Positions 34,351-64,000 of a stretch of DNA of 64,000 nt are shown here, piece by piece. Position 1 is the stretch's first letter. The number at the start of each line of letters is the position of its first letter. A program made the translations under genes and the position numbers. Origin of the DNA: a virus. The notes under the pieces are model-generated. The model made no database searches. It saw only the letters and a list, made by a program, of their open reading frames with translations, and was not told where the DNA came from. The stretch is taken from IMG/VR virus record IMGVR_UViG_3300043778_000063, positions 1-64,000 of that record. The stretch is one strand, 5' to 3'.

Positions 34351-35091
34351 TCAGAACTCGACAGCGACGCCGGCGAGATACTTCGTCCCGACGGTCGACG
34401 TCACGCCGACCGGGCCACCGAACGTGACGCCTTTGTTTTGAAATACGGTCTCGACGTACTCGCGAACGGCAGAACCGTTGCTGAGTTGCTCCATCAGGTC
34501 GAACTCGATTTTTGGCGAGAACGACCAGACTTTGTTGGATCCGGCGCCGAGAAAGGCGACCGTGACGTCGTCCGCGCGGAAGCCTGCGCCAAAGCCGGCT
34601 TGAACGTTACTTGCAGTGACGCCGACCGGCAGCAACGGGAACGGGGCTACGCTGCTGAACGGATTCGGCAAGCTCAGCAGACCCAACGCGTTCTGGATGG
34701 TCGAAACAGGCGTCCATATCAGTCCGGTACCCTCGAATGAGACCGGGCCCGAGACCGAGAAGCCAGCGTTGGCGCCGTTGAAATTAGTCGCGCTGACTTT
34801 GCCCTCGATCGCATAGGCGAACATGCTGCTTTTGCTGCCCCAGGCATAGCCGGCATTCAGGCCAACACCCGCCGTGGTCGTGGTCAGGCTGGCCGGGTTA
34901 ACGCCAGGGACACTGGCGACCACCGGGCCGCCGCCGGCCTCGGTGAAGATGCCGGCGTAGAAGCCGGAAGTGCCGAACGGATAGCCGGTAAAGACGGGGG
35001 TTGCTGGCGCCTTGACGGCCATGTCCGCAGCAAGCGCGGGACCGGCCAGGAAAGCCGCGGCGATCGCCGCAATGCGGAGGAAGTTCTTCAT
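34351..35091 (-). CDS. Host-like outer-membrane beta-barrel protein
   Basis: 246 residues from the ATG at 35091 (AGAGGA upstream). Signal peptide MKNFLRIAAIAAAFLAGPAL with cleavage after ALA, then ADMAVKAPATPVF and SGFYAGIFTEAGGG, an opening typical of RopB/Omp25-like barrels in Bradyrhizobium and relatives. Alternating hydrophobic strands follow, and the chain ends in Phe (VAVEF), the usual C-terminal insertion signal for barrels. It is followed by its own terminator, so it forms a separate unit. Might alter the host surface (receptor masking, superinfection exclusion); that is inference. Confidence 0.75.
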   Translation of the reverse strand: MKNFLRIAAIAAAFLAGPALAADMAVKAPATPVFTGYPFGTSGFYAGIFTEAGGGPVVASVPGVNPASLTTTTAGVGLNAGYAWGSKSSMFAYAIEGKVSATNFNGANAGFSVSGPVSFEGTGLIWTPVSTIQNALGLLSLPNPFSSVAPFPLLPVGVTASNVQAGFGAGFRADDVTVAFLGAGSNKVWSFSPKIEFDLMEQLSNGSAVREYVETVFQNKGVTFGGPVGVTSTVGTKYLAGVAVEF

Positions 35092-35208
35092 GGAGTGTCC
35101 TCTCAAGGGGTGACGGAATGCGCAGGAAGGTACGCGCCGACCACGTCAGGCCGAAAGAGGATTTACGGCGGCGCGCGTCAGATTATCTCCGACTGCGGCA
35201 TTTATACA
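35092..35208 (-). other. Upstream region of the porin-like gene
   Basis: About 115 bases with no gene. A GATAAT box (35182-35187) with GATGTA 17 bases upstream (35205-35210) is the best promoter candidate on the minus strand; the -35 match is poor. Confidence 0.35.
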
Positions 35209-35451
35209 TCACCGCCGTTCGCCGGTCTGTTCGCATCCGTAGCGGCCGCAGGGATGATAGCCAGCCTCGATAGCATCCTTGGACCACGATTGCGGGATCC
35301 AAAATCGCTGTTCCGAATCCAGCGATAGCGGCACACCGCGGACTTGAGCGCTGGTCGTGCAGCAATCCGGAGTTACCGAAAACATCACCATGCGTTCGGC
35401 CGCGGCCGCAGGAATCACCGAGGCCAGCAGCGCCGCAATGACCCGGTTCAT
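35209..35451 (-). CDS. Small secreted protein with Cys
   Basis: 80 residues. Signal peptide MNRVIAALLASVIPAAAA, then a short mature part with five Cys (TPDCCTTS, then HPCGRYGCEQ) likely to form disulfides in the periplasm. ATGA-coupled to the holin-like gene. No family recognised. Confidence 0.6.
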   Translation of the reverse strand: MNRVIAALLASVIPAAAAERMVMFSVTPDCCTTSAQVRGVPLSLDSEQRFWIPQSWSKDAIEAGYHPCGRYGCEQTGERR

Positions 35452-36164
35452 GCGGCCGTCAGCGGCGCCGTGGGGGGAACGAGGAAGCTCGGCGGGGCTG
35501 TTGCCGAAGGCACAATGGGGCGGTCCGTGACCGGAACCGGCGGCTCCGGGCTGTCCTTGTGCGCGTCGGCGATGATGGCGGCGCCTGCGGTCGTCTGCGG
35601 GATGGCATCGATGATTTTGGCGGCGACCACGTCGGGCGTCAGGCCGAACCGCTTGAGCACCCCGGGTATTGCCAGCGACGCCTGATTCGCCGCGCGCGCC
35701 AACATCGCGTTATCGACCTGCACGGACTTCCCGCTCATTCTGACGGCGCCATCGGAGATCAGCGACGCAGCGCGGTTCTGGAGGAACGTCGTCAGCGCGT
35801 TGCGATGCCCCTGGTCGAGGTCGATATTCCACTTCGATTTCAGCACGGTTGCCATGTAGCCGACGAGCGCCAGGATCAGCGCATTGGCAACCGAGTCGAT
35901 GTACGGCTCAAGCCAGCCGAAGGCGGAAAACTGGATGAGGCCACCGGAGGGCGGCGCCGGCGCCGAAATCAGCGCAACCTTGCCGCCATCATCCTTCTGC
36001 AGCTGCGCCTGTCCGATCGCCACCGGACCGCCCACTCGCTGGGACGCCACCACATCGGCCGTCGCCGGCATCGGCACGCCCTCCGGGTGGATGTTATTGA
36101 ACTGCGCGGCCGCCGGCAGAACCAAGGCCAGCAGCATGGCCGGGACGATGAGAAGTCGGCGCAT
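35448..36164 (-). CDS. Signal-peptide membrane protein, possible LLH-type holin
   Basis: 238 residues. Signal-like N-terminus (MRRLLIVPAMLLALVLPAAA), second membrane segment at about 89-108 (IDSVANALILALVGYMATVL), followed by a helical domain with LDQGHRNALTTFLQNRAASL, which recalls LL-H-type phage holins. Pro-rich C-terminus. Adjacent to the endolysin. Assigned mostly on context. Confidence 0.55.
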   Translation of the reverse strand: MRRLLIVPAMLLALVLPAAAQFNNIHPEGVPMPATADVVASQRVGGPVAIGQAQLQKDDGGKVALISAPAPPSGGLIQFSAFGWLEPYIDSVANALILALVGYMATVLKSKWNIDLDQGHRNALTTFLQNRAASLISDGAVRMSGKSVQVDNAMLARAANQASLAIPGVLKRFGLTPDVVAAKIIDAIPQTTAGAAIIADAHKDSPEPPVPVTDRPIVPSATAPPSFLVPPTAPLTAA

Positions 36165-36173
36165 CAGGATCTC

Positions 36174-36377
36174 CTATTCGGGGAAAATTCTGTCTATCAC
36201 GGCGCAGAAGGCGGCGTAAGCGTCTTTCAGCTCTTTCATGCCGTTCTCGAACTGCGCCGCAGCAGCGGGAACGCCCTCGCCGATGCCGTTGGTGGCGCAG
36301 TTGGCCGCGCGCGCCTTGGTCGCGTCGATCAGGCCATCCTTGACCGCCTGCAGCATCTCCGCCCGGGACAGGGTCAC
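36174..36377 (-). CDS. Small helical protein next to the endolysin
   Basis: 67 residues from GTG, overlapping the endolysin stop as GTGA. Helical throughout (MLQAVKDGLIDATKARA, then GMKELKDAYAAFCAVIDRIF). Unknown role, lysis cassette by position. Confidence 0.55.
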   Translation of the reverse strand: MTLSRAEMLQAVKDGLIDATKARAANCATNGIGEGVPAAAAQFENGMKELKDAYAAFCAVIDRIFPE

Positions 36378-37228: not shown

Positions 37229-37240
37229 CGATCCAACTCC

Positions 37241-38401
37241 TCAGTTCTGGGATTCCTTCGAGACGATGAAGTTCGATACGAACCCCGTCGGGTTGGCGAC
37301 CATGATAGCACCGTTGTACGACCGGATGTTGAGGCAATCGTTCAGATTGAGCCACATGCTGGCGCTGACTTTCGTGGTCTGCACGCCACCAGTGCCATTC
37401 TCCTCATCCGCCTTGATGATGCCGCCGTTGACGTACAGCGACACGTAGAACACGGTATTCGGCGGCGCAGAGGGGAAATACAGCGTCGCGTCGGCATGGT
37501 ACACACCTGCGACATGCGGCGTGAAACAGCCTGTGGCCGGATTATAATCCCCGTTCAAATCGGTGTAGATCAGATCCGGCACGAGGAATTGCGGCGTCGG
37601 CGTCGCCGAGAGCGCGACCGCCTCTTGCCAGCCGACTGACGTCAACGTCGGACCGCCGAGCGTGACCGGGATTCCAGCCAGATAGCTCATGACGTCTTGG
37701 TTGAAATACCCAGGCTGGTGACCCAACGTCCGGATCGTGAGCAGAGAGCAACTGGCGCCGACCGCTGGACAGAATATCGACGACGTCAGATTCTCCGGGA
37801 CGGTCGAGTCGTTGTCCCCGTGCCAGATCTGGATCGGAACGCCTACAAAATTTGCTGCATTCAGATTCGGCGTGACTGAACTCTGGATCGCCGAAAATCC
37901 GGCCGCCGTCACGCCATATGCGCTGTATAGCGACGCCTGAAGCGACGGGAAGACAGCAGGGTCGGTCACGGGGAAAACTGCCGCGATCCGAGCGCACATC
38001 GAGGCCGGAGCATTGAAATTTTGCAAGCCTCCGCGCGATTGCGCATAGCAATTCGGTTTCGCCGCTAGCGAATAATTCGACGTGATAAACGCAGCGAATG
38101 GTCCCAACTGCGCGGCGTTATAGCCGTAGTCGTCGAGCCCGCCATCGGCCCCAGGAATCCACATGCCGACCACGGTCTGGCAAAATGGCTGCTGCGATAG
38201 GCCGGCTATCAAAGGGAGTGGTGCGGCATATCCGAGGCCGCCATTTGACACCGGCCCGGTCGGCATGATCAGCGTCCATTGATTGCCCGTGCAGCCGGCT
38301 GCGGGCGTATTCATGAAATATGTGAACCCATTCCATGTCAGAGCATTTGCGGGAAGACATCCGATCGACAACAGGAGCAGTGCTGCTAATATTTTTTTCA
38401 C
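37241..38401 (-). CDS. Secreted alpha/beta-hydrolase-like protein with C1q-like C-terminus
   Basis: 386 residues. Signal peptide MKKILAALLLLSIGCLPANA. Residues ~40-240 have an esterase-like order: nucleophile region YAQSRGGLQNF (Ser122), IWHGDNDSTVP (Asp196/198) and TLGHQPGY (His228), with several Cys that may form disulfides. Residues ~255-386 form a jelly-roll of the C1q/TNF type (CFTPHVAGVYHADATLYF, FYVSLYVNGGIIKADE, ASMWLNLNDCLNIRSYNG), as found at the ends of tail fibres. Likely a virion-associated enzyme that modifies surface polysaccharide; the signal peptide is unusual for that. Confidence 0.75.
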   Translation of the reverse strand: MKKILAALLLLSIGCLPANALTWNGFTYFMNTPAAGCTGNQWTLIMPTGPVSNGGLGYAAPLPLIAGLSQQPFCQTVVGMWIPGADGGLDDYGYNAAQLGPFAAFITSNYSLAAKPNCYAQSRGGLQNFNAPASMCARIAAVFPVTDPAVFPSLQASLYSAYGVTAAGFSAIQSSVTPNLNAANFVGVPIQIWHGDNDSTVPENLTSSIFCPAVGASCSLLTIRTLGHQPGYFNQDVMSYLAGIPVTLGGPTLTSVGWQEAVALSATPTPQFLVPDLIYTDLNGDYNPATGCFTPHVAGVYHADATLYFPSAPPNTVFYVSLYVNGGIIKADEENGTGGVQTTKVSASMWLNLNDCLNIRSYNGAIMVANPTGFVSNFIVSKESQN

Positions 38402-38413
38402 GTTGATTCCTTG

Positions 38414-40504
38414 CTATGGTGAATAATGCTCAAGAACGTAGATTGATCCGACAGCCCCCGCTCCGCCAGGTTGGCCTGTAGATGCCGTGCCTGCAGCCCC
38501 TCCCGCGCCAACGCTATAGGAATAAGTCGCGCTCGGCGCATTGACTATCTTGCTGAAACATCCTCCTGCGCCACCTCCAGTTCCAGCTCCAGCGCCAGCA
38601 AGCGCCGTTCCGCCGCTGCCTCCTCCCCCTGAATTTGTGATCCCGGCCGTGCCTGCATTTCCCGGTGTCGAGATTGGACCACCGCCACTATAAAATCCGC
38701 TATCACCTCCGATTCCAGCGTTTCCGGTTGTCCCGGTTCCCGGGCCGCCGGCTCCTCCTGTAAAATTCAGATCTCCTCCTGTGGCCGTACCGCCGTTGAC
38801 CGCGGCGCCATTATTACCATTGCCTGCGCCACCGCCGTTTGCGGTCAAGAATGATGATCCAAATGTCGTGGCAGATCCTGCTGTGGCTGCAACTGTCGTT
38901 CCGGTTCCTCCGAACCCGCCGCCGCCGCCGCCGCCGCAGCCGCGAATCTCCAGCCACGATACGGCACCGTTGGCGGTCGGTGTCGTGTACGTTCCGGAAA
39001 CAAATCCGCCTGTTCCGGTTGCTGTACCAGAGTTGAGAGCCGTGCTAACCGTGATCGGTCCGGTGCCCTTGATGGTGGTGGCGCTGGCAAATACTGCAGC
39101 CTGGCCGGCCGCTGGTGTGCCGCTGGTCGAGACGTTTCCTGATCCAGCTGGCGTTTGCCATGTGCCATCTCCGCGCCAGAAAGTGGATGAGGATGCGCTC
39201 GTTCCGCTATTCAAGTTCGTGACTGGCAGATTTCCGGTGACACCGCCATTGCCCGATGAGGCTAGATTCGCGGCCGACATGAACGAGCCAGAAACCGTCC
39301 CCGAATTGATCTCCGATCCGGCAATCGACTTGTTCGTGAGCGTTTGCGTATCGGTCGTCCCAACGATCAACCCGCTTGCGGGGAAGGTCTGCGCGGTCCC
39401 GCTGACCGTAAGAGCGGTGAATGCTCCCGTGCTCGGCGTTCCCGACCCGATCGGACCCGGCGTCGCGAAATTGGCGCCATTGATAAATGATGCGTTTAGA
39501 TTCGCGACCACTGTGGTCGACGCCACTGAGAATGGTGCGGTACCTGTTGCGAGGGTCGATGCGATCTGACCTGACGTCGTCATCGTACCCGTGATCGCTG
39601 GTGTGATCATCGTTGGCGATGTATTGAGCACATAGCCGCCAGTCCCGGTTGGTGCGGTACCGTTGTTGTAAATGAGGCCTGCAATATTGAGGGTGCTGAT
39701 GCCCTTGTCACCCCCGGTCGGCGATCCGATCGTGATGCCGCCGCTGGCATTCTGGCATAGTCCATTGGCCAATATCGCCGAGGCGATCGGTGTCGTCGCC
39801 ACGCAAGCCTGGCTGCCCTGATGCCCGGACGAGATGTTCTCCGCCGCATAGATCCGATAAGATGCAATCGCCGTCGTCGTCAGACCCGCGCCGTTGTACG
39901 CCCATGAGTTGAACGATCCGACCTCGGTGCCCGATGTGATCGCGGTTGGACTCGCGTTGGTCCCGCCGTACGAAACCCCGGAGAACGTCGATGGCTGACC
40001 GAACGCGTTGAGTTGGATGCGGCCGACCACGCCATTCGCCGCTCCGACGTTCAATGCAGCACCCGCGATCGCCGCCGGCAACGTGGTGGCGTTCAGGTTG
40101 ATGATCTGCTCGGCGGCAAATGTGTTCGTGGCGTTTATGACCGCACACGTCGCGCACGGGCCAACCCCGATCGGACCGACCGTTGATCCGTTGACCTGGA
40201 AGAAAAATCCGGCAGCGGTATCCCAGACGTCTCCATTGATGGGTGATGTCGCAGGTACGCCAGGCGCAATATTGAACCCGGAACGCGATGCCGTTGATGG
40301 CGCCGTGGTCAACTCGCCGGTCATGATTCCGCCGGACGTCAAGACCGGAGGTGCTCCAAGATAATCTTGCTTCGATGCCCACTCCTCGTTCCATTGCGCT
40401 GTGGTTGGAACTTGCCCGTAAGTCCAGCCGGGGTTGCTCTGCGCCAGCGCGGCGCTCGGCAGGAGCGCCAGCAACGCGAAGAGGGCCGCTTTCAAATGGC
40501 GCAT
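38414..40504 (-). CDS. Tail fibre protein with signal peptide and Gly-rich tip
   Basis: 696 residues. A Sec-like signal ([20 protein letters not shown]) precedes the fibre start [20 protein letters not shown]. The middle is repetitive fibre shaft ([42 protein letters not shown]), as in lambda-like fibres. The last ~170 residues are very Gly-rich ([16 protein letters not shown]... [17 protein letters not shown]), matching receptor-binding tips built of polyglycine II helices. Would bind the host surface. Confidence 0.85.
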
Positions 40505-40513
40505 CGATTTCCC

Positions 40514-41386
40514 TCAGTTCTGGAACGGTGGCAGTTTCCACGCATCGACATTCGCCGTGGTCAGATCGGCGACATCCGACATCGCCTGCGCCGCCCATCG
40601 GTGAATCGATTCGACCGTCTTCCTGTTGGCCTCTCGCGCCAGCATGAAGGCGTGATCGGCGGGTGATCTGGTCTTCGCCATCAGGCCAGGCCGGTCGGCA
40701 TAGGCGGCCTCGGCTTGCTTCACCACCGCAGCCTGATCGGCGATCGGCTGATCAAGCGCTTTTGCTGCCGCCAGATCAGAGGCAATCACCGCGCCGAGCC
40801 CGGTCAGAGACTGCATCGCCGCTCCGATCAGTCCCGGCTGCTCGGCGGCCAACTTCATCTCAATTTTCTCTTGCTGGCTATTGAGAGCGGCCAACTTGTT
40901 CCGTTCATTGTCAACCGCGCGCAGCGATTGCTCAACGGCTGCGGCATCCGCCACCTGTATGTCGGCGGCGCGAAACTCGGCGGCGCGCAGCTTCGCCGCC
41001 GGGATGACTTTCTCGATCTGCGCTACCTCGGCCTCCTGGATCTGACCGATCAACGCCTGCTTCTTCGCCGCAAGAACCTGATCCGGTGTCGGGCCATCGT
41101 CCACGATGACATAGTTCGGTCCGGTATCATCGACCGCGCCAGCAACAATGGCAGGAGCGATCGGCGGCGGGAACGGCGCGTGCGCTTTTTCCTTCGGCAC
41201 GCCAGCGGCCTTGTCTGCAGCGACCGCAGCCATGTGAGCCTTCCAATCCGTCATTTCCTTGGCATAGGCTGCGACGTCCGCCTGGAACGTCGGGCCCACC
41301 TGAGACTTCAGAATCTTCGCCGGCTCAGCGGCAAAGACCGTCGACGTGAAAAATATCGCGATGAGAAGCAGAGCTGCGCGTTTCAT
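40514..41386 (-). CDS. Secreted coiled-coil protein between fibre genes
   Basis: 290 residues from the ATG at 41386 (ATGA with the collar gene). Signal peptide MKRAALLLIAIFFTSTVFA, then helical segments (KKQALIGQIQEAEVAQIEKV and further coiled coil). No fibre or enzyme motif. Probably a fibre-attachment or assembly protein by position. Confidence 0.6.
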   Translation of the reverse strand: MKRAALLLIAIFFTSTVFAAEPAKILKSQVGPTFQADVAAYAKEMTDWKAHMAAVAADKAAGVPKEKAHAPFPPPIAPAIVAGAVDDTGPNYVIVDDGPTPDQVLAAKKQALIGQIQEAEVAQIEKVIPAAKLRAAEFRAADIQVADAAAVEQSLRAVDNERNKLAALNSQQEKIEMKLAAEQPGLIGAAMQSLTGLGAVIASDLAAAKALDQPIADQAAVVKQAEAAYADRPGLMAKTRSPADHAFMLAREANRKTVESIHRWAAQAMSDVADLTTANVDAWKLPPFQN

Positions 41387-42597
41387 AGTTTGATAATCCA
41401 TATGCCGATCATGGCTCGAGGCGTGTTATTGGCCGGCGTGTTGAAAAGACCGTTACCGCCATCGGTGGCGCCGTTGACGACATGCGTGTGGTTGGCGCTC
41501 TCGGTGCTCGTCGTGAACGAATAGGCGTGCTGATGACGCGTGCTGGCGCCTGACGTGTTGACGTTCGAATTGTTGAAGCTACCTCCGCCAGCGACATTCG
41601 CACCACCGCCGCCGAATCCCTCGACCGAGTGGAAATGATCCGGACTATCGTTTCCGGTCGTGCCGGATCCGGTATGCGTATGGGCGGCGCTCTCGATGCT
41701 GCTCGTGATGTTGATGTTGTGCGTGTGCGCCGGGAGTTCGCCGACAGTGTTGGTGTGAAAGACCTCGCCGATCAATGATAGATTGAAGTTCGGGCCGCCG
41801 CCGAAAATGACCGGGACGCTATTCAGAACCCCTGTGCCCTGGTCGTTCCCCATCTGCATGGAGCCAGCCATCGAAAACACGGCGATTTGCTTGTTCGCTG
41901 CGTAATCCGCTGCAGCATTGGCTCCTCGGCCGCCAGTGACCGGGCACTGCGTGTTCGAGCAATTATTCCACAGCAGAACGTACAGAAGTTGCGTCGTCGA
42001 GTTGGCCACTGTCGCACCGGACGACGCATTACCTATCGTAGTCGAGGCGTTCAGGTTGACCCATCCAGAGGGTACGGTCGTCCAGGTCCACGCGATCGAG
42101 CCGGTCTGATACGTGCTCGGCAGCGGCACCCAATTCGTCCCGCCAGTGTCCGGGTTCGAGGTGTTGTTGTCGGCGGTCGAAAGCCAGAAGTCACCTGGAA
42201 CGATCGTAGATTGGAGAATGGCTCCCTTCGGGTATCCATTCGCGGCTCCGGTCGCAAACGTCGCGTCGTAGAATGTCGGGCCGCCTGCGGATGTCCACTG
42301 ATCCCATTGCGTGATCTGCCGCAGAATGCCGTTGAAGTCCTGCCCGAACGGCGCGCAGCCGCCGGCAGCGGCCGGCACGAAAGTGAGCGGCGGAAAACCA
42401 TCCGTGAGCGAGGCCGAGCAATTCGTGATGCCGATCTGAGACGGCTGCGGAATCGATCGGATGTACGGCGTCGCCGCAAACGCGCCCCAGGTCAGCGCGA
42501 ACTTTGGCGGGACATTGGCCTGCTGGATGGCGCCCGCACCGCTCGCGCCGAACAGCGCCAGAGCCGCGACAAAGGCTGCTATGATTCGGTTCTTCAT
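41383..42597 (-). CDS. Tail collar/fibre protein with signal peptide
   Basis: 404 residues from the ATG at 42597 (GGGAGAG upstream). Signal MKNRIIAAFVAALALFGASG. The N-terminus PKFALTWGAFAATPYIRSIP and PFGQDFNGILRQITQWDQW are typical of phage tail-fibre proteins with a collar domain. The C-terminus has the repeated His pattern VGELPAHTHNINI, AHTHTGSG, RHQHAYSF, NHTHVVNG that binds iron in short-tail-fibre tips, and ends RAMIGIWIIKL. Likely fibre tip. Confidence 0.85.
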   Translation of the reverse strand: MKNRIIAAFVAALALFGASGAGAIQQANVPPKFALTWGAFAATPYIRSIPQPSQIGITNCSASLTDGFPPLTFVPAAAGGCAPFGQDFNGILRQITQWDQWTSAGGPTFYDATFATGAANGYPKGAILQSTIVPGDFWLSTADNNTSNPDTGGTNWVPLPSTYQTGSIAWTWTTVPSGWVNLNASTTIGNASSGATVANSTTQLLYVLLWNNCSNTQCPVTGGRGANAAADYAANKQIAVFSMAGSMQMGNDQGTGVLNSVPVIFGGGPNFNLSLIGEVFHTNTVGELPAHTHNINITSSIESAAHTHTGSGTTGNDSPDHFHSVEGFGGGGANVAGGGSFNNSNVNTSGASTRHQHAYSFTTSTESANHTHVVNGATDGGNGLFNTPANNTPRAMIGIWIIKL

Positions 42598-42614
42598 GCG
42601 GTAATTCTCTCCCA

Positions 42615-43292: not shown

Positions 43293-45154
43293 GTGTGCGA
43301 AACCAAAATGTTCGCCGCGGTGAGCTGCGGCACCTGATTCGCGTTGACCTGGATCACGATCTGATCGGCAGATGCCGCAGTGAATACTCCGTTGGTGGTG
43401 AGCGCCGCACCGCTCGACGTCGTGGTGTTGCTCGTCACGTAAACGCCAGCACCGCCGGGCGTGCCGCTGGTTTGGTTGACGATGATGGTATTGGACGGAA
43501 CGCCGGTACCGGTCAGAACATTGCCGTTTACAATCACGCCGGTCACAGCCGTCACGGTCAAGTTAAAACCTGATCCCGTGCCCGTGAACGTCGCGCCAAA
43601 TAGCGTCTGGGGTTGGTTGACCGTATAGACGCCGACGCCGCCCGGGGTGCCGCTGGTCTGGCCGGTGATATAGGTGGCATTCAGCGTGAGATTGAGCACG
43701 TCGAACAGCGCATCATTCGTGATCAACGTCCCTGACGTCACCGCAGTGACCGTCAGATTATTCCCGGAAATATTCCCAACCACGACCGCATCGGATTCAT
43801 TGGCCGATCCGATACCGATCGCAGCGACCTGCGCCCATGTCCCCAACGCCGCCACAGCTGGGACGTACTGGATCGCGTATAACTGAGAATTGATCCGCGC
43901 CCGCGGAATCGTCGTCCCGGTGGTGGTGGTCGCCGAAGTCATCGGCTCGCTGGTGACGGTCTGCGCCACGCTGACCGAATAGGTGCCGATTCCTCCGGTC
44001 CCGGTGCCGAAACCGGTGATCGTCGTGTTGGCGACCAGATTGCCGGTGAGGTCATCGATCGTCTGGCCGATTGACAGCGTTCCGGAATTCACCGCGCTGA
44101 CGGTAAGCGTCGTCCCCGCCACCGAGCCCGTGAAATTGGCCTGCAGGGATTGCCCCGAGAATGCTGCGAGGATCGCGCTCTGGATCTGGGTCTGGAATGT
44201 CGATGGGACCAGCGGGCCGTTCGCGACCACGATCTTGAACAGCACCTGAAGCGCTGGCGGGATCTCGTAGGTGATCTGGTACGGAACCGGCGCGGAATAC
44301 AGCGGATTCGAATCGTAGACCGTGACCGTGGTGTTTCCCACCATCGGCGAGCCCGGGCTCTTTTTGGACCAAATCGCCTGCGCCACGGCCGCTGGCGCGC
44401 CGCCGGCAACGCAGATGTACGTCGAATAGGCCGCGATCGAGACCCCGTTGATGACCACGGTCCCGTTCGTGGGATTGGCGACACCGTAATAGTCGAGAAC
44501 CCCTGGCACCTCGGCGACGGCGCCGATGATGGCACCGACCGGGCCGAAACTGTTGCCGGCGACGCTATCCTGCCGCCGCGTTTCAAATGCCGCGCGGCTC
44601 TCGACGTTGCGTCCGATCGCGCCCGACAGCACCGTGGCGGAATCCCATCCGGGGATGAGCTGCGTCAGGGTCACCGCGGCAGGTACCGCCAGCGGGCCCG
44701 GCACCACTGCGGCAAACGACAGCGTGATCGCCCCTCCGACTGGGATCGTGCCGGCCTGGACGCACTGATAGAGGTTGTTGTTGATGTCCTGGACCAGCGC
44801 GCCGATCGGAATTATGACGCCTTGGGCGCCGTTGCAGATGATCTGGAGTGCGGTCGGTTCCGAGGGCTGCCGGGCGAAGCCGGGGATCAGCCGCCCCAGC
44901 GCATCCTGAAACCTGCCGGACGCATAGGCCGGATCGAACTGTTGAGCGTAATAGACCGCAGTCGAATACGTATTGACGACGATCGCGCCCCAGGACTGCG
45001 CCAACTGCCCCTGCGGTGTCGTGAGCCCGTAGTTGAGCGCGCTACCGAACGCGCCGCTGATGTCGAGTTGCACGCCGGCGAGAACGGACGGGCCCGATGG
45101 CGCCAGAAACCCGGCCGACGTCCATTGTATTTGGGGGACCGACGTTCCGGCCAT
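43289..45154 (-). CDS. Baseplate gpJ-like protein with three inserted beta modules
   Basis: 621 residues. The gpJ core begins [20 protein letters not shown] and includes [38 protein letters not shown] (about 178-197), [18 protein letters not shown] and [18 protein letters not shown]. Three copies of a ~65-residue module interrupt the core: residues ~340-406, 457-522 and 523-588, of the form [20 protein letters not shown] ... [10 protein letters not shown]. Without them the length is near the usual 400-430. The assembly forms the wedge periphery of the baseplate. Confidence 0.9.
43391..43786 (-). repeat. Beta module, copies 2 and 3 of gpJ (tandem)
   Basis: Copy 2 (43589-43786) contains [15 protein letters not shown] and [17 protein letters not shown]. 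Copy 3 (43391-43588) contains [12 protein letters not shown] and [13 protein letters not shown]. Related at protein level to the modules in the sheath, tail terminator, a minor protein and the capsid accessory protein. Confidence 0.85.
43937..44137 (-). repeat. Beta module, copy 1 of gpJ
   Basis: Contains [20 protein letters not shown] and [20 protein letters not shown]. Separated from copies 2-3 by about 50 residues of core gpJ sequence. Confidence 0.85.
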
Positions 45155-51240: not shown

Positions 51241-53238
51241 TCATTGGATGGCGACGCTCGACAGGCTGATGCTTTGCGCTGAGCCCCTATCAAGGTACCA
51301 GAACGTGATTGCCCACGGTCCACGGTTCAGCCGAATGTTGGTCGCCTGCTGCAGGACCTGGAGGTAGTAGCCCTGAGCCTGCAGCGTGTCGGTGATGTTG
51401 AGGCTGGGATTGCCGGCGTTCGCTCCAGCCTGCGAGTTCACTGCGGCGATTTGTGCCGGAGAAATGGTGCCGGGCGCAAAGGCATTGAAATTGAGACCGG
51501 CCTGGATCGGCGAAGCCAGCGCGGCCTCGATGAGCGCCGCGCCGACCGTGTTGAACGGGATCGACAGCGAGTTGTTCATCAGGTTGAGCAGCGCGAGTTG
51601 CAGGTTGCTGTTCAGCCAGATCTGATTGACGTAACTGTCGGCCCAAAGGAATGATCCGGTGATGATCCCGCGCTGGAGCCACGTGAAATTGGCATTTCCG
51701 GAGCCGACGGCACCATAATAATTGTAGCCGTTGCCGCGGTCGCCGAGGACCTGCGGATTGCCACCGATATTGATCGCGGTCTGCCCGGATACGACATCGG
51801 AGACCAAGCCGGTCTGACTTCGGAAGGCGAAATCAGTTCGGCCATTGGTCTGGTTGAAATTGATCGACGCCGCGATTCCCATTACGAAAGCGGCTTGGTT
51901 GAGATCGGTGAGTTCGGAGATCAGGAACGTCCCGGAATCGCCATTGCCGGCTAGAATCTGCCCGAGCGTTTCCGATTGCGGCGGGTTCGACCGCACCAAC
52001 ACGTCGGTGTCGCCCGGCACGTACATGTAGCGGTTCGGGAACGTGTTTTTCCAAGCGGCAAAGGCTTGCTTGAGCGTGTTTCCGACGCCGCCATCCGGAT
52101 CCACCGTGGTCGTATAGGTGGCCCAGTTGGTGGTGATCGCGACCACGGCGTTCATGACACTAGCCGGCGTCGCCGCCGCGGCACCCTGCGAGAGGAACGC
52201 GCCGGTCGCCGAGGTCAGCAGCAGCGAGGCCGCCAGCGTCCCGGTGGCGAATGCCGAGGTCGAGGCGGCTCCGGTGATCCCCGAGGTGATCACGAACGCC
52301 CCGGACTGGGAATCGAACGTCACCAGGGGAGCAGTCGCGATCGCCGTCATGGCCTCGCTGGCGACCTGCTGTTGCGCACCGCTGAGCCGATAGGTTCCGA
52401 CGCCGCCTGCGGGCCCGGTGAGTTGCGCGGTGATCGTCGGCGCGCCCGTGACCCCGGCGCCGACCACGGTCTGGCCGACCACCAGCGACACGACGGATTC
52501 CACCGTGACATTGAGGACCGTGCTCGAGCCGACGCACGCCGCACCGGAGGCAGTGCCGCTCAGGCTGGTGACGTAGACGCCAGCCCCGCCCGTGGTCCCG
52601 GAGGTCTGGGAAACGATCGTGGTGTTCGCCGCGACGCCGGTTCCGGTGACGGTGTCGCCGATCGAAATCAGCCCGGTGACGGCCGTCGTCGTCATGTTGG
52701 TGCCGGCCTGTGTCGCCGTGAAGGTGGCGCCGATGGCCGCGGTAAAGGAGGCCTCCGTCGGATCGGTAAATGCCGCCTGGATCGCGGCAGCAGCGGCCGA
52801 GAAGCTGTTCGATGAGGCCAAACTGATCGACGCGATCGCGTGCGCGTAGCCGTCCATGACGATGTTGAGGGAACCGTTCAGGGCTTGCAGTTGCGCCAGC
52901 GTCAGGGCCGCACCGGCGTTGCCGCCCCACAGATACGCCGCGACGGCGGCGGCATTGTACTGCGCGAACAGCAGCGCGCCCGGCAGCGAATTGGAGTTGG
53001 TGAACCCGCCGAAATAGCCGGTCCCCTTGCCGCCGCCGCCGCCGGCCATCAGGGCTTCCTGGGAGGACGAGCCGAAGAACGCCGCGACCGCCGTGGCGCT
53101 CGCGAAGCTATAGACGGCCCCTAGAGGAACCCGGTTGCTGCCGGTCAGGATCAGGCCATTGAGACTGACGGCCTGGCCGACGGTCGAGAGGACGGATGGG
53201 ACGACGTTTACGAAGAGACTCGCAGGAATCGTCGTCAT
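51241..53238 (-). CDS. Tail sheath protein (DUF3383) with two inserted beta modules
   Basis: 665 residues, about 130 more than expected. The DUF3383 core opens SLFVNVVPSVLSTVGQAVSL, has FASATAVAAFFGSSSQEAL and YFGGFTNSNSLPGALLFAQY, and resumes after the insert with DVLVRSNPPQSETLGQILAG, NFTWLQRGIITGSFLWADSY and LNRGPWAITFWYLDRGSAQS. Residues ~166-233 and 234-299 are two copies of the shared module, placed in the variable region where sheaths show surface insertions. Contracts around the tube at infection. Confidence 0.9.
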   Translation of the reverse strand: MTTIPASLFVNVVPSVLSTVGQAVSLNGLILTGSNRVPLGAVYSFASATAVAAFFGSSSQEALMAGGGGGKGTGYFGGFTNSNSLPGALLFAQYNAAAVAAYLWGGNAGAALTLAQLQALNGSLNIVMDGYAHAIASISLASSNSFSAAAAAIQAAFTDPTEASFTAAIGATFTATQAGTNMTTTAVTGLISIGDTVTGTGVAANTTIVSQTSGTTGGAGVYVTSLSGTASGAACVGSSTVLNVTVESVVSLVVGQTVVGAGVTGAPTITAQLTGPAGGVGTYRLSGAQQQVASEAMTAIATAPLVTFDSQSGAFVITSGITGAASTSAFATGTLAASLLLTSATGAFLSQGAAAATPASVMNAVVAITTNWATYTTTVDPDGGVGNTLKQAFAAWKNTFPNRYMYVPGDTDVLVRSNPPQSETLGQILAGNGDSGTFLISELTDLNQAAFVMGIAASINFNQTNGRTDFAFRSQTGLVSDVVSGQTAINIGGNPQVLGDRGNGYNYYGAVGSGNANFTWLQRGIITGSFLWADSYVNQIWLNSNLQLALLNLMNNSLSIPFNTVGAALIEAALASPIQAGLNFNAFAPGTISPAQIAAVNSQAGANAGNPSLNITDTLQAQGYYLQVLQQATNIRLNRGPWAITFWYLDRGSAQSISLSSVAIQ
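52342..52743 (-). repeat. Two beta modules inside the sheath
   Basis: Copy 1 (52540-52743): AGTNMTTTAVTGLISIGDTV and [16 protein letters not shown]. Copy 2 (52342-52539): LVVGQTVVGAGVTGAPTITA and GPAGGVGTYRLSGAQQ. Confidence 0.85.
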
Positions 53239-53317: not shown

Positions 53318-54067
53318 CTACGGAAGCGGATATTTCGCATCCACACTCACCGGGGTAAGGACGGCGCTGTCGGCGAAGGTTTGTGGGACAGAAATGACGA
53401 TATTCGACTGTAAAATGCATTCCGAGACCCAACGCCACTCGATTTGCGATTCCTCATTCAGGAACGGCATCTGGCGCGCATCATCGGCGTAGAGTGGCGC
53501 CACGCCGTAATAGGGCGATTGTCCCTGAAATTGCAGCACGGCGAATTCATCCCGGAACAGGGCGCTCACGGTCGCCGCCATATCGCCGGCCGAACTCAAA
53601 TCAGCACTATGGAAATCGAGTTGGATCGTGTGCTTGGTCGGCATCATGATTTGCTTGGTGCCGGTCGAGATGGTCAGCGGCCCAACGGTCTGGGGTGGGG
53701 ATACCGTATAGGTCCCGATCTGGCCAGTTCCGGTCAGGATCGCGCTCACCGAGGTCCCGGCCGTGATCCCGACGCCGAAGATGGTGCCGCCGACCCCGAT
53801 CTGCGCGTTCGGAAACTTGGGATTCACTGCGGTGATCGTCAAAGTCGTTCCGGCGATCGACCCCGTGAACACGCCATCGGCGTAGCCATCGACGTTCGTC
53901 TCAAGCCGCTCCTGGCGGATCTGCGTCATCACGACAAAATCGACCCCGGCAGGCTCAGGCACCCGGTTCTGCTGCGCTGGAACCACCACGACACCGGCCG
54001 GCAGGACCGATAGCAAAAAGCTCCGGAGTTGCGCGAAGACGTTCGACTGGGTTGGCGATGGTGTCAT
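53318..54067 (-). CDS. Tail terminator/connector protein (LIC_12616-like) with one inserted module
   Basis: 249 residues. Core: [39 protein letters not shown], then after the insert [31 protein letters not shown] and [23 protein letters not shown]. This pattern fits the small protein placed just before the sheath in related myoviruses. Residues ~66-136 are a copy of the shared module between two core strands. Confidence 0.8.
53660..53872 (-). repeat. Beta module inside the tail terminator
   Basis: Contains [40 protein letters not shown] and [12 protein letters not shown]. Confidence 0.85.
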
Positions 54068-54108: not shown

Positions 54109-55428
54109 TCATGGACCAAATCCAGACGCAAATCCAGACGGGACAGGCTGTGTCAACTGAGAGGCCGAAAAGTTTGACGTTAGTTGGTCGCCCGTGGCCT
54201 CAATCATAGCTATCGGATATCGCTTTCCGGTACCTAGCGGACCCGTGCTTACTCCGCCAACTCCAGTGGACGGGTTAGCTGATCCGTTACCGTTCCAAGA
54301 TTGCGCCACGCCTGATCTAACTCGCCGAAACCAAGCCAAGTTAGCCGTAAAATCCTGACATTCCTGTATGATGTCGCCACCTGTCCACGTCGCCGCCGCT
54401 GCTAATGTCGTTCCGTTTATTTCTATCGCGCCAGTGTCGAAGTATCCGATGCTGTTATTGTCTCCGGTCCCTGGCTGGAACGCGCCATTGTATTCGTTGG
54501 CGGTATTGACCAATCCGACAATTAGAAGATTGTTGAAGGCGTCTGCCGAGATTTCCCAACAGTACTTTCCAGACGAGACGCCTGGGAACCCTCGCACTTG
54601 ACGATTTCCAAAACCGGATAAATTAGTGATAGTTCGATTGCCATTCGAAAGCACACCCGATGATGCGATATCGATCGGACTGAATGTCAAAGGCGCCTGA
54701 ATTTGGGTTCCAGGGTGCTTCATGACGCTGACTATTTGAGGCTCGGCAATCGTTGCTAAGGTATAATACCCGAGCGCCGTGAGGTGCACACAGTCCGATT
54801 GATAGTAGGTTGCGTTGCAAGCGCCAGCTTGCGTGGAAAACGCAGGGTTGGCAAAAAAATCCACGAGTGCGTCGGCACTAAGATCCGAGTTCCAATACGA
54901 TCTGATAAGCCCATTTAGGCTTATGATCGTCGGCATTTCCTGCGTCGTATCGTTGGAGTTATTTCTTGCAATCAAAGTGGCGATAGTTACACGCTGAAAT
55001 CCCGCCGCCCGCGCATCTGCGATAATGCTACGTAAGGTCACGTAGATCGCTGAGGCGCTGGTACCGCTGTTGACATCATTTGTCCCGGCGAACAGAATTT
55101 CAACATTAAGCGCCTTCGTCGCATCGAAATCGGAGACGTATTGCGATGGATAATTGGCTAAAATAGTCGCTGCGGTGATCCCGCTCACGCCATGGTTGAG
55201 CGTCGTGTAGGCGGGACCGTGAGGCAACAGGAACGAGACTTGATCTGGGTAATCGAATGGCGGCGAAACGAATAAACCCGCCGTTAAGCTGTCACCCACG
55301 TAAGTCAGTTTGACGCTCGATGGAAGCCCCGATCCACTCATGATAAGCAGACGACAGGCCCCGGTGCAGGCTCTGGTCTCCGACAGGAACGCCAGAGTTA
55401 CAAATAGGGCGATCAGAATTTTCCTCAT
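54109..55428 (-). CDS. Secreted SGNH/GDSL hydrolase with SPRY-like C-terminus
   Basis: 439 residues. Hydrophobic signal (MRKILIALFVTLAFLSETRA). SGNH blocks are complete: LTYVGDSLTAG (Ser47), NHGVSGITA (Gly83), FAGTNDVNS (Asn117) and SDCVHLTALGY (Asp212, His215). Residues ~275-400 form a SPRY-like beta sandwich (GKYCWEISADAFNNLLIVGL, IGYFDTGAIEINGTTLA, IIQECQDFTANLAWFRR). Probably an O-acetyl esterase acting on capsule or lipopolysaccharide, with the SPRY part for attachment or binding. More A/T-rich than flanking head and tail genes. Confidence 0.88.
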   Translation of the reverse strand: MRKILIALFVTLAFLSETRACTGACRLLIMSGSGLPSSVKLTYVGDSLTAGLFVSPPFDYPDQVSFLLPHGPAYTTLNHGVSGITAATILANYPSQYVSDFDATKALNVEILFAGTNDVNSGTSASAIYVTLRSIIADARAAGFQRVTIATLIARNNSNDTTQEMPTIISLNGLIRSYWNSDLSADALVDFFANPAFSTQAGACNATYYQSDCVHLTALGYYTLATIAEPQIVSVMKHPGTQIQAPLTFSPIDIASSGVLSNGNRTITNLSGFGNRQVRGFPGVSSGKYCWEISADAFNNLLIVGLVNTANEYNGAFQPGTGDNNSIGYFDTGAIEINGTTLAAAATWTGGDIIQECQDFTANLAWFRRVRSGVAQSWNGNGSANPSTGVGGVSTGPLGTGKRYPIAMIEATGDQLTSNFSASQLTQPVPSGFASGFGP

Positions 55429-56276
55429 GGATCGCTCACATAGGGAGGTCGGTTTTTATATGGATTGTTCGCCGGAAGATTTGACCCGTTTTTCCCGTCA
55501 TACCAACTTTCCCACCCCTCCAGTTTAGCAACCTCGCTAGCCGTCAGAACCCTGTTGAAACAAAATGCTTGTTGGATGACGCCCGTGAATGGCGAGCCAC
55601 CATTCGAGTTTGCCCCGATAGCACCTCCGGCAGTTCCGGTGGCTGGCGTGCTCAGCGTTGCTGTTTGGGTGACCCCGTCTGCAGTGACGGATGCGGCCGT
55701 TCCATTCTGATTCCACACGATCATTCGATCAACCGAACTCCACCCGAAGGTTGTGAAAAAATCGCTCGTAAAGAGGCCGGCGTCGATCGTGCTGCCTGAA
55801 ACACGAAGCATTCTCCAACTAAGATTTGATCCATTGTAACCGTATCCAAACACGCCGACTGTGTTTGTCGTGGCATATGCTGCCAGAGCCAGCGATCCGG
55901 GGGACGCGCCGGAAGGAAACCCAGTTTGCGCAAACGAGAGAAATTGGCTCCCGTTGAAAGTAAGACCAGGTTTTCCGTTCCTGGCGGTAGTGCTATAACC
56001 GGGCTGAGCAGATCCAGTTACTTGCGTTGCCGCAATGCCAGATGCCTTATCAGACCATGATGAAACTGTCGTGCTGTTGAATATTATGCTTGGAAAATTC
56101 TGCGCGTCCCACCACGCTACGAGGGACGACCCAATGTTCAGCGGTGTCCACAGTTTATTGCCACTCATCAGCAACAACCGCCGCCCACTCTGCGCATCCG
56201 CCGATCCGAACCCAAGCGCCAGCAGCTCGGATACCGCCAGTGCGGCTACGACAGTGATGGAAGACCGCCGGCGCAT
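55425..56276 (-). CDS. Secreted LamG-like protein
   Basis: 283 residues from the ATG at 56276. Signal MRRRSSITVVAALAVSELLA. The body is a concanavalin-like sandwich: VAWWDAQNFPSIIFNSTTVS SWSD, KPGLTFNGSQFLSFAQ, VDRMIVWNQNGTAASVTADG and GVIQQAFCFNRVLTASEVAK LEGW. This fold is common in phage adhesins. Begins RLLLMSGNKLWTP after the signal, like the next gene (RLLIMSGSGLP), so the two share an N-terminal segment. Confidence 0.75.
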   Translation of the reverse strand: MRRRSSITVVAALAVSELLALGFGSADAQSGRRLLLMSGNKLWTPLNIGSSLVAWWDAQNFPSIIFNSTTVSSWSDKASGIAATQVTGSAQPGYSTTARNGKPGLTFNGSQFLSFAQTGFPSGASPGSLALAAYATTNTVGVFGYGYNGSNLSWRMLRVSGSTIDAGLFTSDFFTTFGWSSVDRMIVWNQNGTAASVTADGVTQTATLSTPATGTAGGAIGANSNGGSPFTGVIQQAFCFNRVLTASEVAKLEGWESWYDGKNGSNLPANNPYKNRPPYVSDP

Positions 56277-56277
56277 C

Positions 56278-56880
56278 TCAATTCTCTTTGTAGGTTCGCA
56301 GGAAATACGAATGCTTTTCGCTGGCGATCGGCGTGTAGGCGCCGATCTCTTCCATGGCATAGATGGTCGCTTGCGGTTCTTGCGATGGAATCGGCTGCAT
56401 GGTCGTCAGCATCAGACTCGAGCCGGAGCATTCCGAGAAATATTGCGCGGTGGCATCGTTCGTCGGCTGCCACGCCGAGCAGGTAAGATTCCCAAGATAG
56501 ATGTTGGCGGCGAGGTCGGCGGCGTAGGGGCCCACGTAGGCGCTACCATCGACGAGGCCTGTCGTGGTCGGCTTGGCAGAATAGAGCCACAACGTCGACG
56601 TCCCCGGCTTGTTGGTGCCGTTCGAATAGATGAGCGCCTTGATCGTGAGCGCCTGACCGGCGGGAACGCTGTTGAGAACGATCGGCGACGCCACGGCGCT
56701 GCCACTATTGTTCAGCGCGAATAGTTGATTCCCCGTGTATGGAGTCGTCCCGGCGAAGTGCGTCGTGCTCCCGAGCCCATTGTAGGCGGTCTGGGAAAAC
56801 GCTGCCGAGGCGAACATGATCAGCCCGAGGACGACGTAGGCGACGGTCAGCCACGTTTTCAACGTTGATTTCGGTTTCAT
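56278..56880 (-). CDS. Secreted hypothetical protein
   Basis: 200 residues from the ATG at 56880 (ATGA with the homing-nuclease gene). Signal/anchor LTVAYVVLGLIMFASAAFS, mature part beta-rich (ALTIKALIYSNGTNKPGTST LWLYSAKPTT). May be a small adhesin partner of the two genes after it. No family recognised. Confidence 0.6.
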   Translation of the reverse strand: MKPKSTLKTWLTVAYVVLGLIMFASAAFSQTAYNGLGSTTHFAGTTPYTGNQLFALNNSGSAVASPIVLNSVPAGQALTIKALIYSNGTNKPGTSTLWLYSAKPTTTGLVDGSAYVGPYAADLAANIYLGNLTCSAWQPTNDATAQYFSECSGSSLMLTTMQPIPSQEPQATIYAMEEIGAYTPIASEKHSYFLRTYKEN

Positions 56881-57788
56881 GTTTCGACTTCCGTTTTGCA
56901 GGGCGCGCTGTCCAAGGTCTTTGCGAGTCTTCGTTTCCGTTCTACGGCTTTGACCCAAGAAGCCCTGATCGTTATGCCTTCTGAGATTAAAACCCTACGA
57001 ATTTCTCTGCGGCCAGCTCCATATTTCCTGACAATGAAATCGACGCTTTTGCCATCTAAGTATTCGGATACGATCAATTTTGCATCTGTTATTATAGATT
57101 TAGCCCTACTGCCCAATGGGTGAATTTTTATCCCGGCACCAATCACAATATTACGTATCGCATCATCATGGGTATGATATATTTTCTTGAGGGTGGCAGT
57201 CCCCTTACCGGATGCATACAGTGCTATGATTTCTGATTTGATTTGATCCGAAGCGATATTTTCAAAACAATTGGACGGCTTCTTTCCTGTTCTTATGGCC
57301 GATATCTTAGTTCTGAATTCTGGCGAACGCTTTCCTGGACTGCCTTTTCCGCCGCGCTTCGCTGATGCAGCTTTTTCTCGGGCGGATGCTGACCATACGC
57401 GCTCCCGATTTGATTTGGCAGTTCTTTCCCGCTGATCTTTCGAAGGTGATCTTCTAGGGCTATTGGCTGACATTTTAGCCCTGGCTTCATCCGACTGTTT
57501 CGTGCCTAAACGGCTTCCGGCAATAAGGCATGAATTATAATTTGGCTTCAAAATATCGATAGCGCGCTGCTCAAACATCAATAAGTCTGATGGACGACAT
57601 ACCAAAAGTCGAATGAAGCTCAGATTCTCTAATCCATATTTGTTGCAAGCGCGTTGAAGTGCTCGGCTGTGATGAATGCCCCTCCGCAAATGGGATTTGT
57701 GCATGTACCATCGCATATTGAAATTGACCGCACTTCCGACGTAGAATCCGCCAGATGGTGATTTGATCTGGTAAATTCCAGAATTCAT
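56877..57788 (-). CDS. GIY-YIG homing endonuclease
   Basis: 303 residues from the ATG at 57788 (an ATG at 57800 adds four). GIY-YIG core: SGIYQIKSPSGGFYVGSA, then Arg30, YGLENLSFIRLL, MFEQRAIDILKPNYN with Glu77 and Asn88. A linker with KMSANSPRRSP and other NUMOD-like basic repeats follows. Two HTH-like repeats end the protein (EIIALYASGKGTATLKKIYH and IVSEYLDGKSVDFIVRKYGA). Clearly more A/T-rich than neighbouring structural genes, so probably an inserted selfish gene. Confidence 0.9.
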   Translation of the reverse strand: MNSGIYQIKSPSGGFYVGSAVNFNMRWYMHKSHLRRGIHHSRALQRACNKYGLENLSFIRLLVCRPSDLLMFEQRAIDILKPNYNSCLIAGSRLGTKQSDEARAKMSANSPRRSPSKDQRERTAKSNRERVWSASAREKAASAKRGGKGSPGKRSPEFRTKISAIRTGKKPSNCFENIASDQIKSEIIALYASGKGTATLKKIYHTHDDAIRNIVIGAGIKIHPLGSRAKSIITDAKLIVSEYLDGKSVDFIVRKYGAGRREIRRVLISEGITIRASWVKAVERKRRLAKTLDSAPCKTEVET

Positions 57789-57789
57789 C

Positions 57790-58335
57790 TCAGTTTCCAT
57801 TCTGCAAGGTGATCACACATTTTGTCCATCCAGCAGTCAGCCCCCAAGGCTCAGGGACCAGCGTCACAAGCCACACTGTTCCGTCAGGCAATCGTATCAG
57901 ATCGCCACCCTTGAGCAAAACGCGCACCACTCCGTTCAGCGTTCCCGACACATAAAGCGCGCGCATTTCTCCCTGAAGGTTGAGCCCTTCCGTCTGATGG
58001 AGATCGCGCGTTGATAATGCCTGGACCTGCCCGATCAGGTTGAGCGCGGTGGTCATCGCCTCCGAGGCGATGGGCGTCGGCTGGATTTGGCTGAGGAGGT
58101 AGGTTCCGAGCCCCCCGGTGGTTCCCGTCAGTTGCGACGTGATCGTGGTGGCCGGCAGCAGCGCTCCGGCGTCGGATAGCGTCTGGCCGGCCTGCAGGAC
58201 CCCGCTGGCGACGTTGGTGACGGTCAGGACATCGCCCGAGACCGAGGCAGTGATTGCGCCTGGGGTGGCGAACGAGGGCGCCTGACTGCCATCTGGATTC
58301 TGCGCGCCGGGCCCGGTGCTGATCTGGACAGTCAC
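57790..58335 (-). CDS. Minor head-tail protein with one inserted module
   Basis: 181 residues. After a short start, residues ~24-97 are a copy of the shared module; the remaining ~85 residues are a small beta domain (TEGLNLQGEMRALYVSGTLN, VVRVLLKGGDLIRLPDGTVW LVTLVPEPW). The latter recalls small tail proteins between capsid and sheath genes. So nearly half of this protein is the module. Confidence 0.7.
   Translation of the reverse strand: MTVQISTGPGAQNPDGSQAPSFATPGAITASVSGDVLTVTNVASGVLQAGQTLSDAGALLPATTITSQLTGTTGGLGTYLLSQIQPTPIASEAMTTALNLIGQVQALSTRDLHQTEGLNLQGEMRALYVSGTLNGVVRVLLKGGDLIRLPDGTVWLVTLVPEPWGLTAGWTKCVITLQNGN
58045..58266 (-). repeat. Beta module inside the minor protein
   Basis: Contains ITASVSGDVLTVTNVASGVL, LPATTITSQLTGTTGGLGTY and IASEAMTT. 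Confidence 0.85.
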
Positions 58336-63311: not shown

Positions 63312-64000
63312 TCAGTTACCGCCGGCGTCCTTGAACGAACTGATCTTCACGGGCTCGAGCGGCAGGCCAGTCGAGCGCGCGTAGAAGGCGGTTTCGACCG
63401 CGAGGCTGGCTACAATCGTATTCGATGTGACGGTTTGGGTCGGATTCACGGCCATCGTTCCGCCCGTGCCGCCCGTGCCCGTGATATTGGCGGTGATCGT
63501 GGTGCCAGCCACGACAGTCGGGCCAGTAAGCACATCCCCCACCGCGAATGTTCCGGTCGCGGTACCGATGGTCAGGATTCCATAGGTGCCTGAAATCGTC
63601 TCTGATGCGGCCGTGATCTCACCCACGTTAAGGGAATATGTTCCCACTCCTCCGGGAGTTCCAGTCAATTGGGCCACGATCAGCGGAGCCGGTGCGGTCG
63701 GTATCGAAGTGCCGGAAATTGCAGCTCCAGGTGTGACGGTGCCAGAACCGACGTTCGTGACCGTCATGATATTGCCGGAGATCGAACCGGTCACCGAGAA
63801 CGTGGCCGGAGCGATGGTGCTGGTCGTCGCCGAGGCGCCACCGAAGGCTGTCCCGGTCGGTGCGAACGCCACCTTGCCGGTAGCAACGAATGCGAATGCT
63901 TTCTGGCCGTACTCAGCCTCGGTAGTACCGTCGTTCTGAACTGCGAAGTCGCCGGCGATCTGCAGCGCCGTCTGAGCGCCTGGTTGGACTTGCAAGCCGG
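63312..64000 (-). CDS. Capsid accessory (decoration/cement-like) protein with two modules, truncated by window edge
   Basis: The frame is open to the window end; a TTG at 63995 is not necessarily the start. The N-terminal visible part (QIAGDFAVQNDGTTEAEYGQ KAFAFVATGKVA) and the ending LEPVKISSFKDAGGN resemble head-stabilising proteins encoded before the major capsid gene. Two copies of the shared module occupy residues ~65-196 between them, so the module makes up most of what is visible. Confidence 0.75.
   Translation of the reverse strand, partial: GLQVQPGAQTALQIAGDFAVQNDGTTEAEYGQKAFAFVATGKVAFAPTGTAFGGASATTSTIAPATFSVTGSISGNIMTVTNVGSGTVTPGAAISGTSIPTAPAPLIVAQLTGTPGGVGTYSLNVGEITAASETISGTYGILTIGTATGTFAVGDVLTGPTVVAGTTITANITGTGGTGGTMAVNPTQTVTSNTIVASLAVETAFYARSTGLPLEPVKISSFKDAGGN
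63408..63803 (-). repeat. Two beta modules inside the capsid accessory protein
   Basis: Copy 1 (63591-63803): VTGSISGNIMTVTNVGSGTV and TGTPGGVGTYSLNVGE. Copy 2 (63408-63590): TGTFAVGDVLTGPTVVAGTT and TGTGGTGGTMAVNPTQTVTS. Confidence 0.85.

What the first reader, a model, noticed from the sequence alone, without database searches (positions are those of the whole stretch)
54109..56880. A second cluster of exported proteins inside the tail module: SGNH/SPRY, LamG-like and a small partner
Seen: three adjacent genes with signal peptides between homing nuclease and tail terminator, A/T-richer than neighbours, two of them starting their mature part with RLL(I/L)MSG. Inference: acquired together as an adhesin/esterase cassette that modifies host or self surface polysaccharide.
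Basis: partly seen in the sequence, partly recalled or inferred. Interest (0 to 1): 0.68.

Follow-up and report, generated by a model that had tools for sequence, protein, structure and literature searches.

The report
Exported adhesin slot in phage tail module
The three genes fill an interchangeable slot in a phage's tail region that encodes proteins with export signals, and the same phages also put export signals and apparent disulfide-forming cysteines on their tail fibres, which suggests that part of these virions is finished outside the host's inner membrane.

Summary
The three signal-peptide (SP) genes are real: 'small' 56278-56880, LamG-like 55425-56276, SGNH 54109-55428, minus strand of a 72.7-kb uncultured myophage contig. 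Correction: only LamG and SGNH are A/T-rich and carry RLL(I/L)MSG.

They are not one co-acquired cassette. They fill a hypervariable slot between the head-closure and tail-terminator genes, empty in 29 of 67 relatives. In phages whose sheath proteins are 96-97% identical it holds other exported proteins; leader-encoding 5' ends persist while mature parts change.

The larger result lies outside the coordinates. Both tail-fibre genes carry SPs; one is the ortholog of cultured Bcep1-type fibres, which start without an SP. In relatives, SP-bearing fibres and slot proteins carry cysteine pairs that SP-less homologues lack (fibre 9/11 versus 0/16; slot family 16/18 versus 2/62), though members are related, so these are not independent counts. 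Each fibre family is single-copy in nearly every genome, so the exported copy is the only candidate fibre.

Best reading: an export-dependent adhesin/enzyme set, probably oxidised in the periplasm and joined to virions at lysis. Export is well supported by sequence; virion attachment and polysaccharide as target are inferred. No precedent found in an open-access literature search.

The parts
57790..58335 (-). Head-closure-type gene, upstream border of the slot; carries one copy of the mobile GTGGxGTY domain
   Evidence: phrog_1912 E 9.7e-20; domain census
56877..57800 (-). GIY-YIG/NUMOD3 homing nuclease inserted at the upstream edge of the slot, absent in L008, imperfect repeats at its ends
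   Evidence: Pfam; breakpoints; flanking sequence and 45.3% GC
56278..56880 (-). 'Small': signal peptide plus beta-sandwich with two Cys invariant in six homologues
   Evidence: SP; alignment; model pLDDT 66; 97%, 71% homologues in the same slot in L008 and L009
55425..56276 (-). LamG-like protein: RRR-type (possibly Tat) leader, mature start GRRLLLMSG, concanavalin-like domain
   Evidence: SP judged by eye
54109..55428 (-). SGNH hydrolase with signal peptide, mature CTGACRLLIMSG; C-terminal part possibly SPRY
53318..54067 (-). Tail terminator, downstream border of the slot
   Evidence: PF23961
51241..53238 (-). Tail sheath (DUF3383), 96-97% identical to relatives with a different slot content
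41383..42597 (-). Tail fibre 1 with signal peptide; ortholog of Bcep1-33; extra Cys pair NC...GGC
   Evidence: phrog_12796 positions 3-187 to residues 33-220; SP-less cultured orthologues; no other start codon in first 50 codons
40514..41401 (-). Exported 295-aa protein of the fibre module
   Evidence: SP
38414..40504 (-). Tail fibre 2 with signal peptide, mature start [18 protein letters not shown]
   Evidence: SP at the same place in 18 of 20 relatives read
37241..38401 (-). Exported 386-aa protein, weak C1q-like C-terminus, 8 mature Cys
   Evidence: SP; Pfam C1q below cutoff
34351..36164 (-). Further SP genes: 238-aa and 80-aa proteins and an outer-membrane-barrel-like 251-aa protein
   Evidence: barrel reading is by eye only

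Best explanation
The interval is a hypervariable slot in the late operon, between the head-closure and tail-terminator genes, for exported adhesin/enzyme proteins, and is one part of an export habit that also covers the phage's tail fibres. Each protein is made with an N-terminal signal peptide, crosses the inner membrane by the host Sec route (perhaps Tat for the RRR-type LamG leader), and is trimmed and probably disulfide-bonded in the periplasm. When lysis opens the inner membrane, the fibres, and probably the slot proteins, meet the assembled tails and attach. Constant leader-proximal 5' ends (SP, or SP plus RLLxxxG) with exchanged C-terminal domains let near-identical phages change how they bind or de-acylate surface polysaccharide. 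Shown by sequence: signal peptides, slot variability, co-occurrence of SP and cysteine pairs, single fibre copy in nearly every genome. Inferred: export itself, disulfides, post-lysis attachment, polysaccharide as target.
For: Slot content differs between phages with sheath proteins 96-97% identical; 29 of 67 relatives have no insert. Leader regions shared between genes with unrelated mature parts. Tail fibre 1 is orthologous to SP-less cultured fibres, with the SP added in front of their first residues, and has no alternative start codon. SP-bearing fibre-1 proteins carry a cysteine pair in 9 of 11, SP-less in 0 of 16. Fibre 2 has an SP in 18 of 20 relatives, dissimilar leaders ending at one conserved mature start. 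Slot-family proteins: exactly two Cys in 16 of 18 with SP, 2 of 62 without. One match per fibre family in nearly every genome. A mobile domain confined, but for one weak hit, to virion genes of the contig is inserted in ten SP-type slot-family ORFs, some from near-identical contigs.
Against: No proteomics, no cleavage or export shown; SignalP was not available, and some SPs were assigned by eye (5 of 18, G022, LamG). SP/Cys members are related: trees need 3-4 changes of which 1-2 are forced, and the independent-pairs test has no power. SP states of slot protein and fibre 1 are not coupled within genomes. LamG has an odd Cys number (1). No tailed phage is known to me to assemble fibres after export.
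Confidence: 0.5

Rival explanations
1. Exported cargo genes ('morons', as lambda lom): the slot proteins go to the periplasm, outer membrane or medium and change the infected cell's surface (receptor masking, de-acylation of polysaccharide, superinfection exclusion, keeping progeny off debris). They never join the virion.
For: SP, patchy presence, A/T-rich insertion; lom is an exported gene inside a tail region (PMC12309495); the window has its own barrel-like exported gene (34351-35106).
Against: No own promoter or terminator above chance and translational coupling to the late genes; mobile virion-type domain in slot-family proteins; SP-less slot-family members occupy the same place; the tail fibres themselves are exported.
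Confidence: 0.33
2. The hydrophobic N-termini are not export signals but uncleaved segments used in virion assembly or membrane contact.
For: All data are sequence predictions; conserved position in front of virion-type domains.
Against: Leaders of homologous proteins are dissimilar in sequence yet keep the n-region/core/AxA layout and end at one mature start; the cysteine pattern fits an oxidising compartment.
Confidence: 0.08
3. One reading: one adhesin/esterase cassette acquired as a unit.
For: Adjacency; LamG and SGNH share the motif and low GC.
Against: 'Small' occurs beside other partners in L008 and L009 and has core-like composition.
Confidence: 0.06

Closest known systems
Bcep1-33 type tail fibre (Naesvirus; phrog_12796)
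   Same: Conserved N-terminal domain, same place after the baseplate genes
   Different: Window fibre has an added signal peptide and a cysteine pair that the cultured fibres lack
Lambda lom and other exported morons in tail regions
   Same: SP-bearing gene inside the tail module (PMC12309495)
   Different: Slot genes are several, exchangeable, coupled to the late genes, and not barrels; here fibres are exported as well
Variable receptor-binding-protein loci of tailed phages
   Same: Constant N-terminus, exchanged C-terminal domains between near-identical phages
   Different: The constant part is mainly a signal peptide, and the place is between head closure and tail terminator, not the baseplate
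phrog_10356 virion structural protein / cyanophage LamG-type structural proteins
   Same: LamG region matches at 36-43% over about 75 residues
   Different: Matches start after the window's leader; whether those proteins have a leader was not examined
SGNH/GDSL esterases
   Same: Pfam match above cutoff and all blocks
   Different: Phage-encoded, exported, with an unassigned C-terminal domain

Membership tests
SGNH/GDSL hydrolase (54109-55428) | Profile match above curated cutoff | tested here: met
   Lipase_GDSL_2 53.8 bits against 32.9
SGNH/GDSL hydrolase (54109-55428) | Catalytic blocks GDS, GxND, DxxH | tested here: met
   YVGDS, GTND, DCVH read in the translation
SGNH/GDSL hydrolase (54109-55428) | Esterase activity | not testable with these tools
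   needs an assay
LamG (55425-56276) | Profile match above curated cutoff | tested here: inconclusive
   Laminin_G_3 22.6 against 27.6; phrog_10356 E 4.5e-15
SPRY (C-terminus of SGNH protein) | Profile or fold match | tested here: inconclusive
   no Pfam hit, TRIM9 chain E 0.0054, model failed
Sec substrates (slot genes and fibres) | n-region, hydrophobic core, AxA-type site | tested here: met
   home-made rule; LamG by eye
Sec substrates (slot genes and fibres) | Export and cleavage | not testable with these tools
   needs fusions or N-terminal mass spectrometry
Tail fibre phrog_12796 (41383-42597) | N-terminal domain and gene place | tested here: met
Tail fibre phrog_12796 (41383-42597) | Presence in the virion | not testable with these tools
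   needs proteomics
Moron (slot genes) | Own promoter and terminator | tested here: not met
   site counts at shuffle level; consensus scan only, weak test
Moron (slot genes) | Insertion absent from relatives | tested here: met
   29 of 67 without insert

The most novel reading that the evidence does not exclude
A lineage of tailed phages sends its tail fibres and neck-region adhesins through the host's export pathway to be folded and disulfide-bonded in the periplasm, and completes its virions only when lysis brings tails and fibres together, so that part of morphogenesis is extracytoplasmic and depends on host secretion and thiol-oxidation systems.
Probability: 0.42. Interest if true: 0.88.

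Novelty: new variant of a known kind. Interest (0 to 1): 0.7.

Why it matters
Tailed-phage assembly is taught as cytoplasmic, and one study reads the lack of signal peptides on phage target proteins as support for their phage origin (PMC6199706). If fibres are exported, 'moron' labels mislead on many environmental phages, host Sec and Dsb functions become predicted requirements for infectious progeny, and the question of when fibres join the tail becomes directly testable. The slot is also a compact natural set of exchanged surface-active domains behind shared leaders.

Tried and rejected
The SGNH gene found no relative in IMG/VR. 'Small' had no match in cultured phages and the ~125-aa slot family only one uncultured record. 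An alignment of 17 slot proteins was too diverse to scan with; smaller ones were used. A first head-closure profile was contaminated by the mobile domain and hit the sheath; it was rebuilt from the C-terminal part. The cysteine regular expression was wrong, so its table is discarded (only the tree is used); one search is the corrected count. The SGNH model failed; 'small' gave a moderate beta-sandwich with generic viral jelly-roll matches, TM at most 0.5, so no function was read from it. No useful PDB relative for LamG, fibre 1, slot family or 'small'. Cultured phages of alphaproteobacteria (phiAO1, ppBjS10J-1, Paso) showed no leader on the fibre-type genes inspected. A Rhizobiales scan gave only the prophage already known, plasmids nothing. 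Rejected: assembly artefact (same synteny in several metagenomes), and internal starts that would skip the leader (none in fibre 1; none between leader and domain in fibre 2).

Full report
What is there. The window is 64 kb of a 72,706-base IMG/VR virus record. Its contractile-tail genes run on the minus strand. The queried genes lie between a head-closure-type gene plus a GIY-YIG nuclease and the tail terminator and DUF3383 sheath: 'small' (200 aa), a LamG-like protein (283 aa, start 56276) and an SGNH protein (439 aa). All three begin with a signal peptide (SP). SGNH is secure; LamG is below its Pfam cutoff but matches a virion-protein PHROG; SPRY is only hinted at. LamG, SGNH and the nuclease are A/T-rich, 'small' is not.

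The slot. Two relatives with sheath proteins 96-97% and terminators 89-90% identical to the window differ in this interval. L008 has 'small' at 97%, then a 355-aa protein with the same leader type and SRLLLLGG, a cellulase-like protein (read by eye, not tested) and a ~125-aa protein. L003 has a 513-aa protein and then the same last three. L009, more distant, has 'small' at 71% and a 709-aa protein with NRLLWMGG. A terminator profile gave 77 loci, some from the same contigs; in 67 the head-closure gene was found. In 29 the two genes abut and in 38 there is a gap of 150 bases or more, often holding SP-bearing genes, though several gaps hold none. The SP rule fired on 0 of 280 core virion genes and 5 of 1269 antisense ORFs.

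How it varies. About 100 bp covering the start region and signal peptide of 'small' match the same region of an unrelated slot gene, and the first 85 bp of LamG match an L003 gene that then diverges. Leaders are shared while mature parts are exchanged. The nuclease sits between head closure and 'small' with imperfect flanking repeats and is missing in L008; that it drives exchange is a guess.

Beyond the given coordinates. The region 34351-42618 holds a run of SP genes. One (41383-42597) is the ortholog of the Bcep1-33 tail fibre: the PHROG profile aligns from its position 3 to residue 33 of the window ORF, and the fibres of Bcep1, Orisa03 and phiAO1 begin there without SP. Read from 42597 the window gene has no second start codon in its first 50 codons, so the leader must be translated. 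Among 27 fibres, 9 of 11 with SP have a cysteine pair at fixed places and none of 16 without SP do. A second fibre (38414-40504) was read in 20 relatives; 18 have an SP of dissimilar sequence ending at the same mature start and two do not (one of the 18, G022, by eye). Several of the 18 carry cysteine pairs in one of two layouts, absent from the two SP-less ones (by inspection). The ~125-aa slot family repeats the pattern: exactly two cysteines in 16 of 18 with SP and 2 of 62 without; five of the 18 were assigned SP by eye after the rule misparsed them.

How strong the cysteine argument is. It is what oxidation in the periplasm predicts, and it recurs in separate families with more than one layout. 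But the members are related: the trees need 3-4 changes of state, of which supported branches force only 1-2, and the independent-pairs test has no power. The Fisher p-values are therefore descriptive only. SP states of slot protein and fibre 1 do not go together within genomes, so export looks like a per-gene trait.

Why virion rather than cargo. Each fibre family gives one match in nearly every genome, so the exported copy is the only candidate fibre, and it keeps the conserved N-terminal domain. In the contig the mobile GTGGxGTY domain sits in baseplate, sheath, head-closure, terminator and a head-side gene, with one weak hit elsewhere, and it is inserted in ten slot-family ORFs, some from near-identical contigs. 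Both points are indirect, and the cargo (Lom-like) reading stays a serious rival for the slot genes.

Literature. Nine searches of the open PMC library found no description of exported tail fibres. One paper notes that phage retroelement target proteins lack signal peptides (PMC6199706); another describes Lom (PMC12309495). Subscription papers and preprints were not searched, so the novelty claim is limited.

Verdict. The cluster is an exported, exchangeable slot within a wider export habit of this phage lineage. Export is well supported by sequence, oxidation is likely, and attachment to virions and action on polysaccharide are inferred.

Noticed in passing
43289-45154, 51241-53238, 53318-54067, 57790-58335, 63312-63995: A mobile ~65-residue domain (GTGGxGTY, phrog_21413-like) is inserted one to three times in several virion genes of this contig and in many relatives' sheath and terminator genes.
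   Followed up: partly
55425-56276; L003:5112-6170; L008:8594-9661; L009:8582-10711; L024:4580-6604: Proteins with the RLLxxxG mature start mostly have RRR(S/E)F-type, Tat-like leaders; the motif could be a docking peptide.
   Followed up: partly
34351-35106: Exported protein that looks like a rhizobial-type outer-membrane barrel (Omp25-like, by eye only; no Pfam hit).
   Followed up: no
56877-57800: GIY-YIG nuclease gene with imperfect ~17-bp repeats at its ends and an empty counterpart in L008.
   Followed up: partly
L048:3272-6982: The slot of this relative holds one 1236-aa exported protein with 28 cysteines.
   Followed up: no
L011:7794-8525, L013:7779-8516: SP-bearing homologues of 'small' lie next to what look like siphophage-type tail genes, so exported tail-module genes may not be limited to myophages (neighbours named by eye).
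   Followed up: no
L181, L182: Homologous tail modules in a Sulfuritalea MAG (slot protein with SP) and in Rhizobium rhizogenes (slot protein and fibres without SP).
   Followed up: partly
L017:1406-3529: Acetobacter phage phiAO1 has an annotated catalase gene on the opposite strand within its tail region.
   Followed up: no
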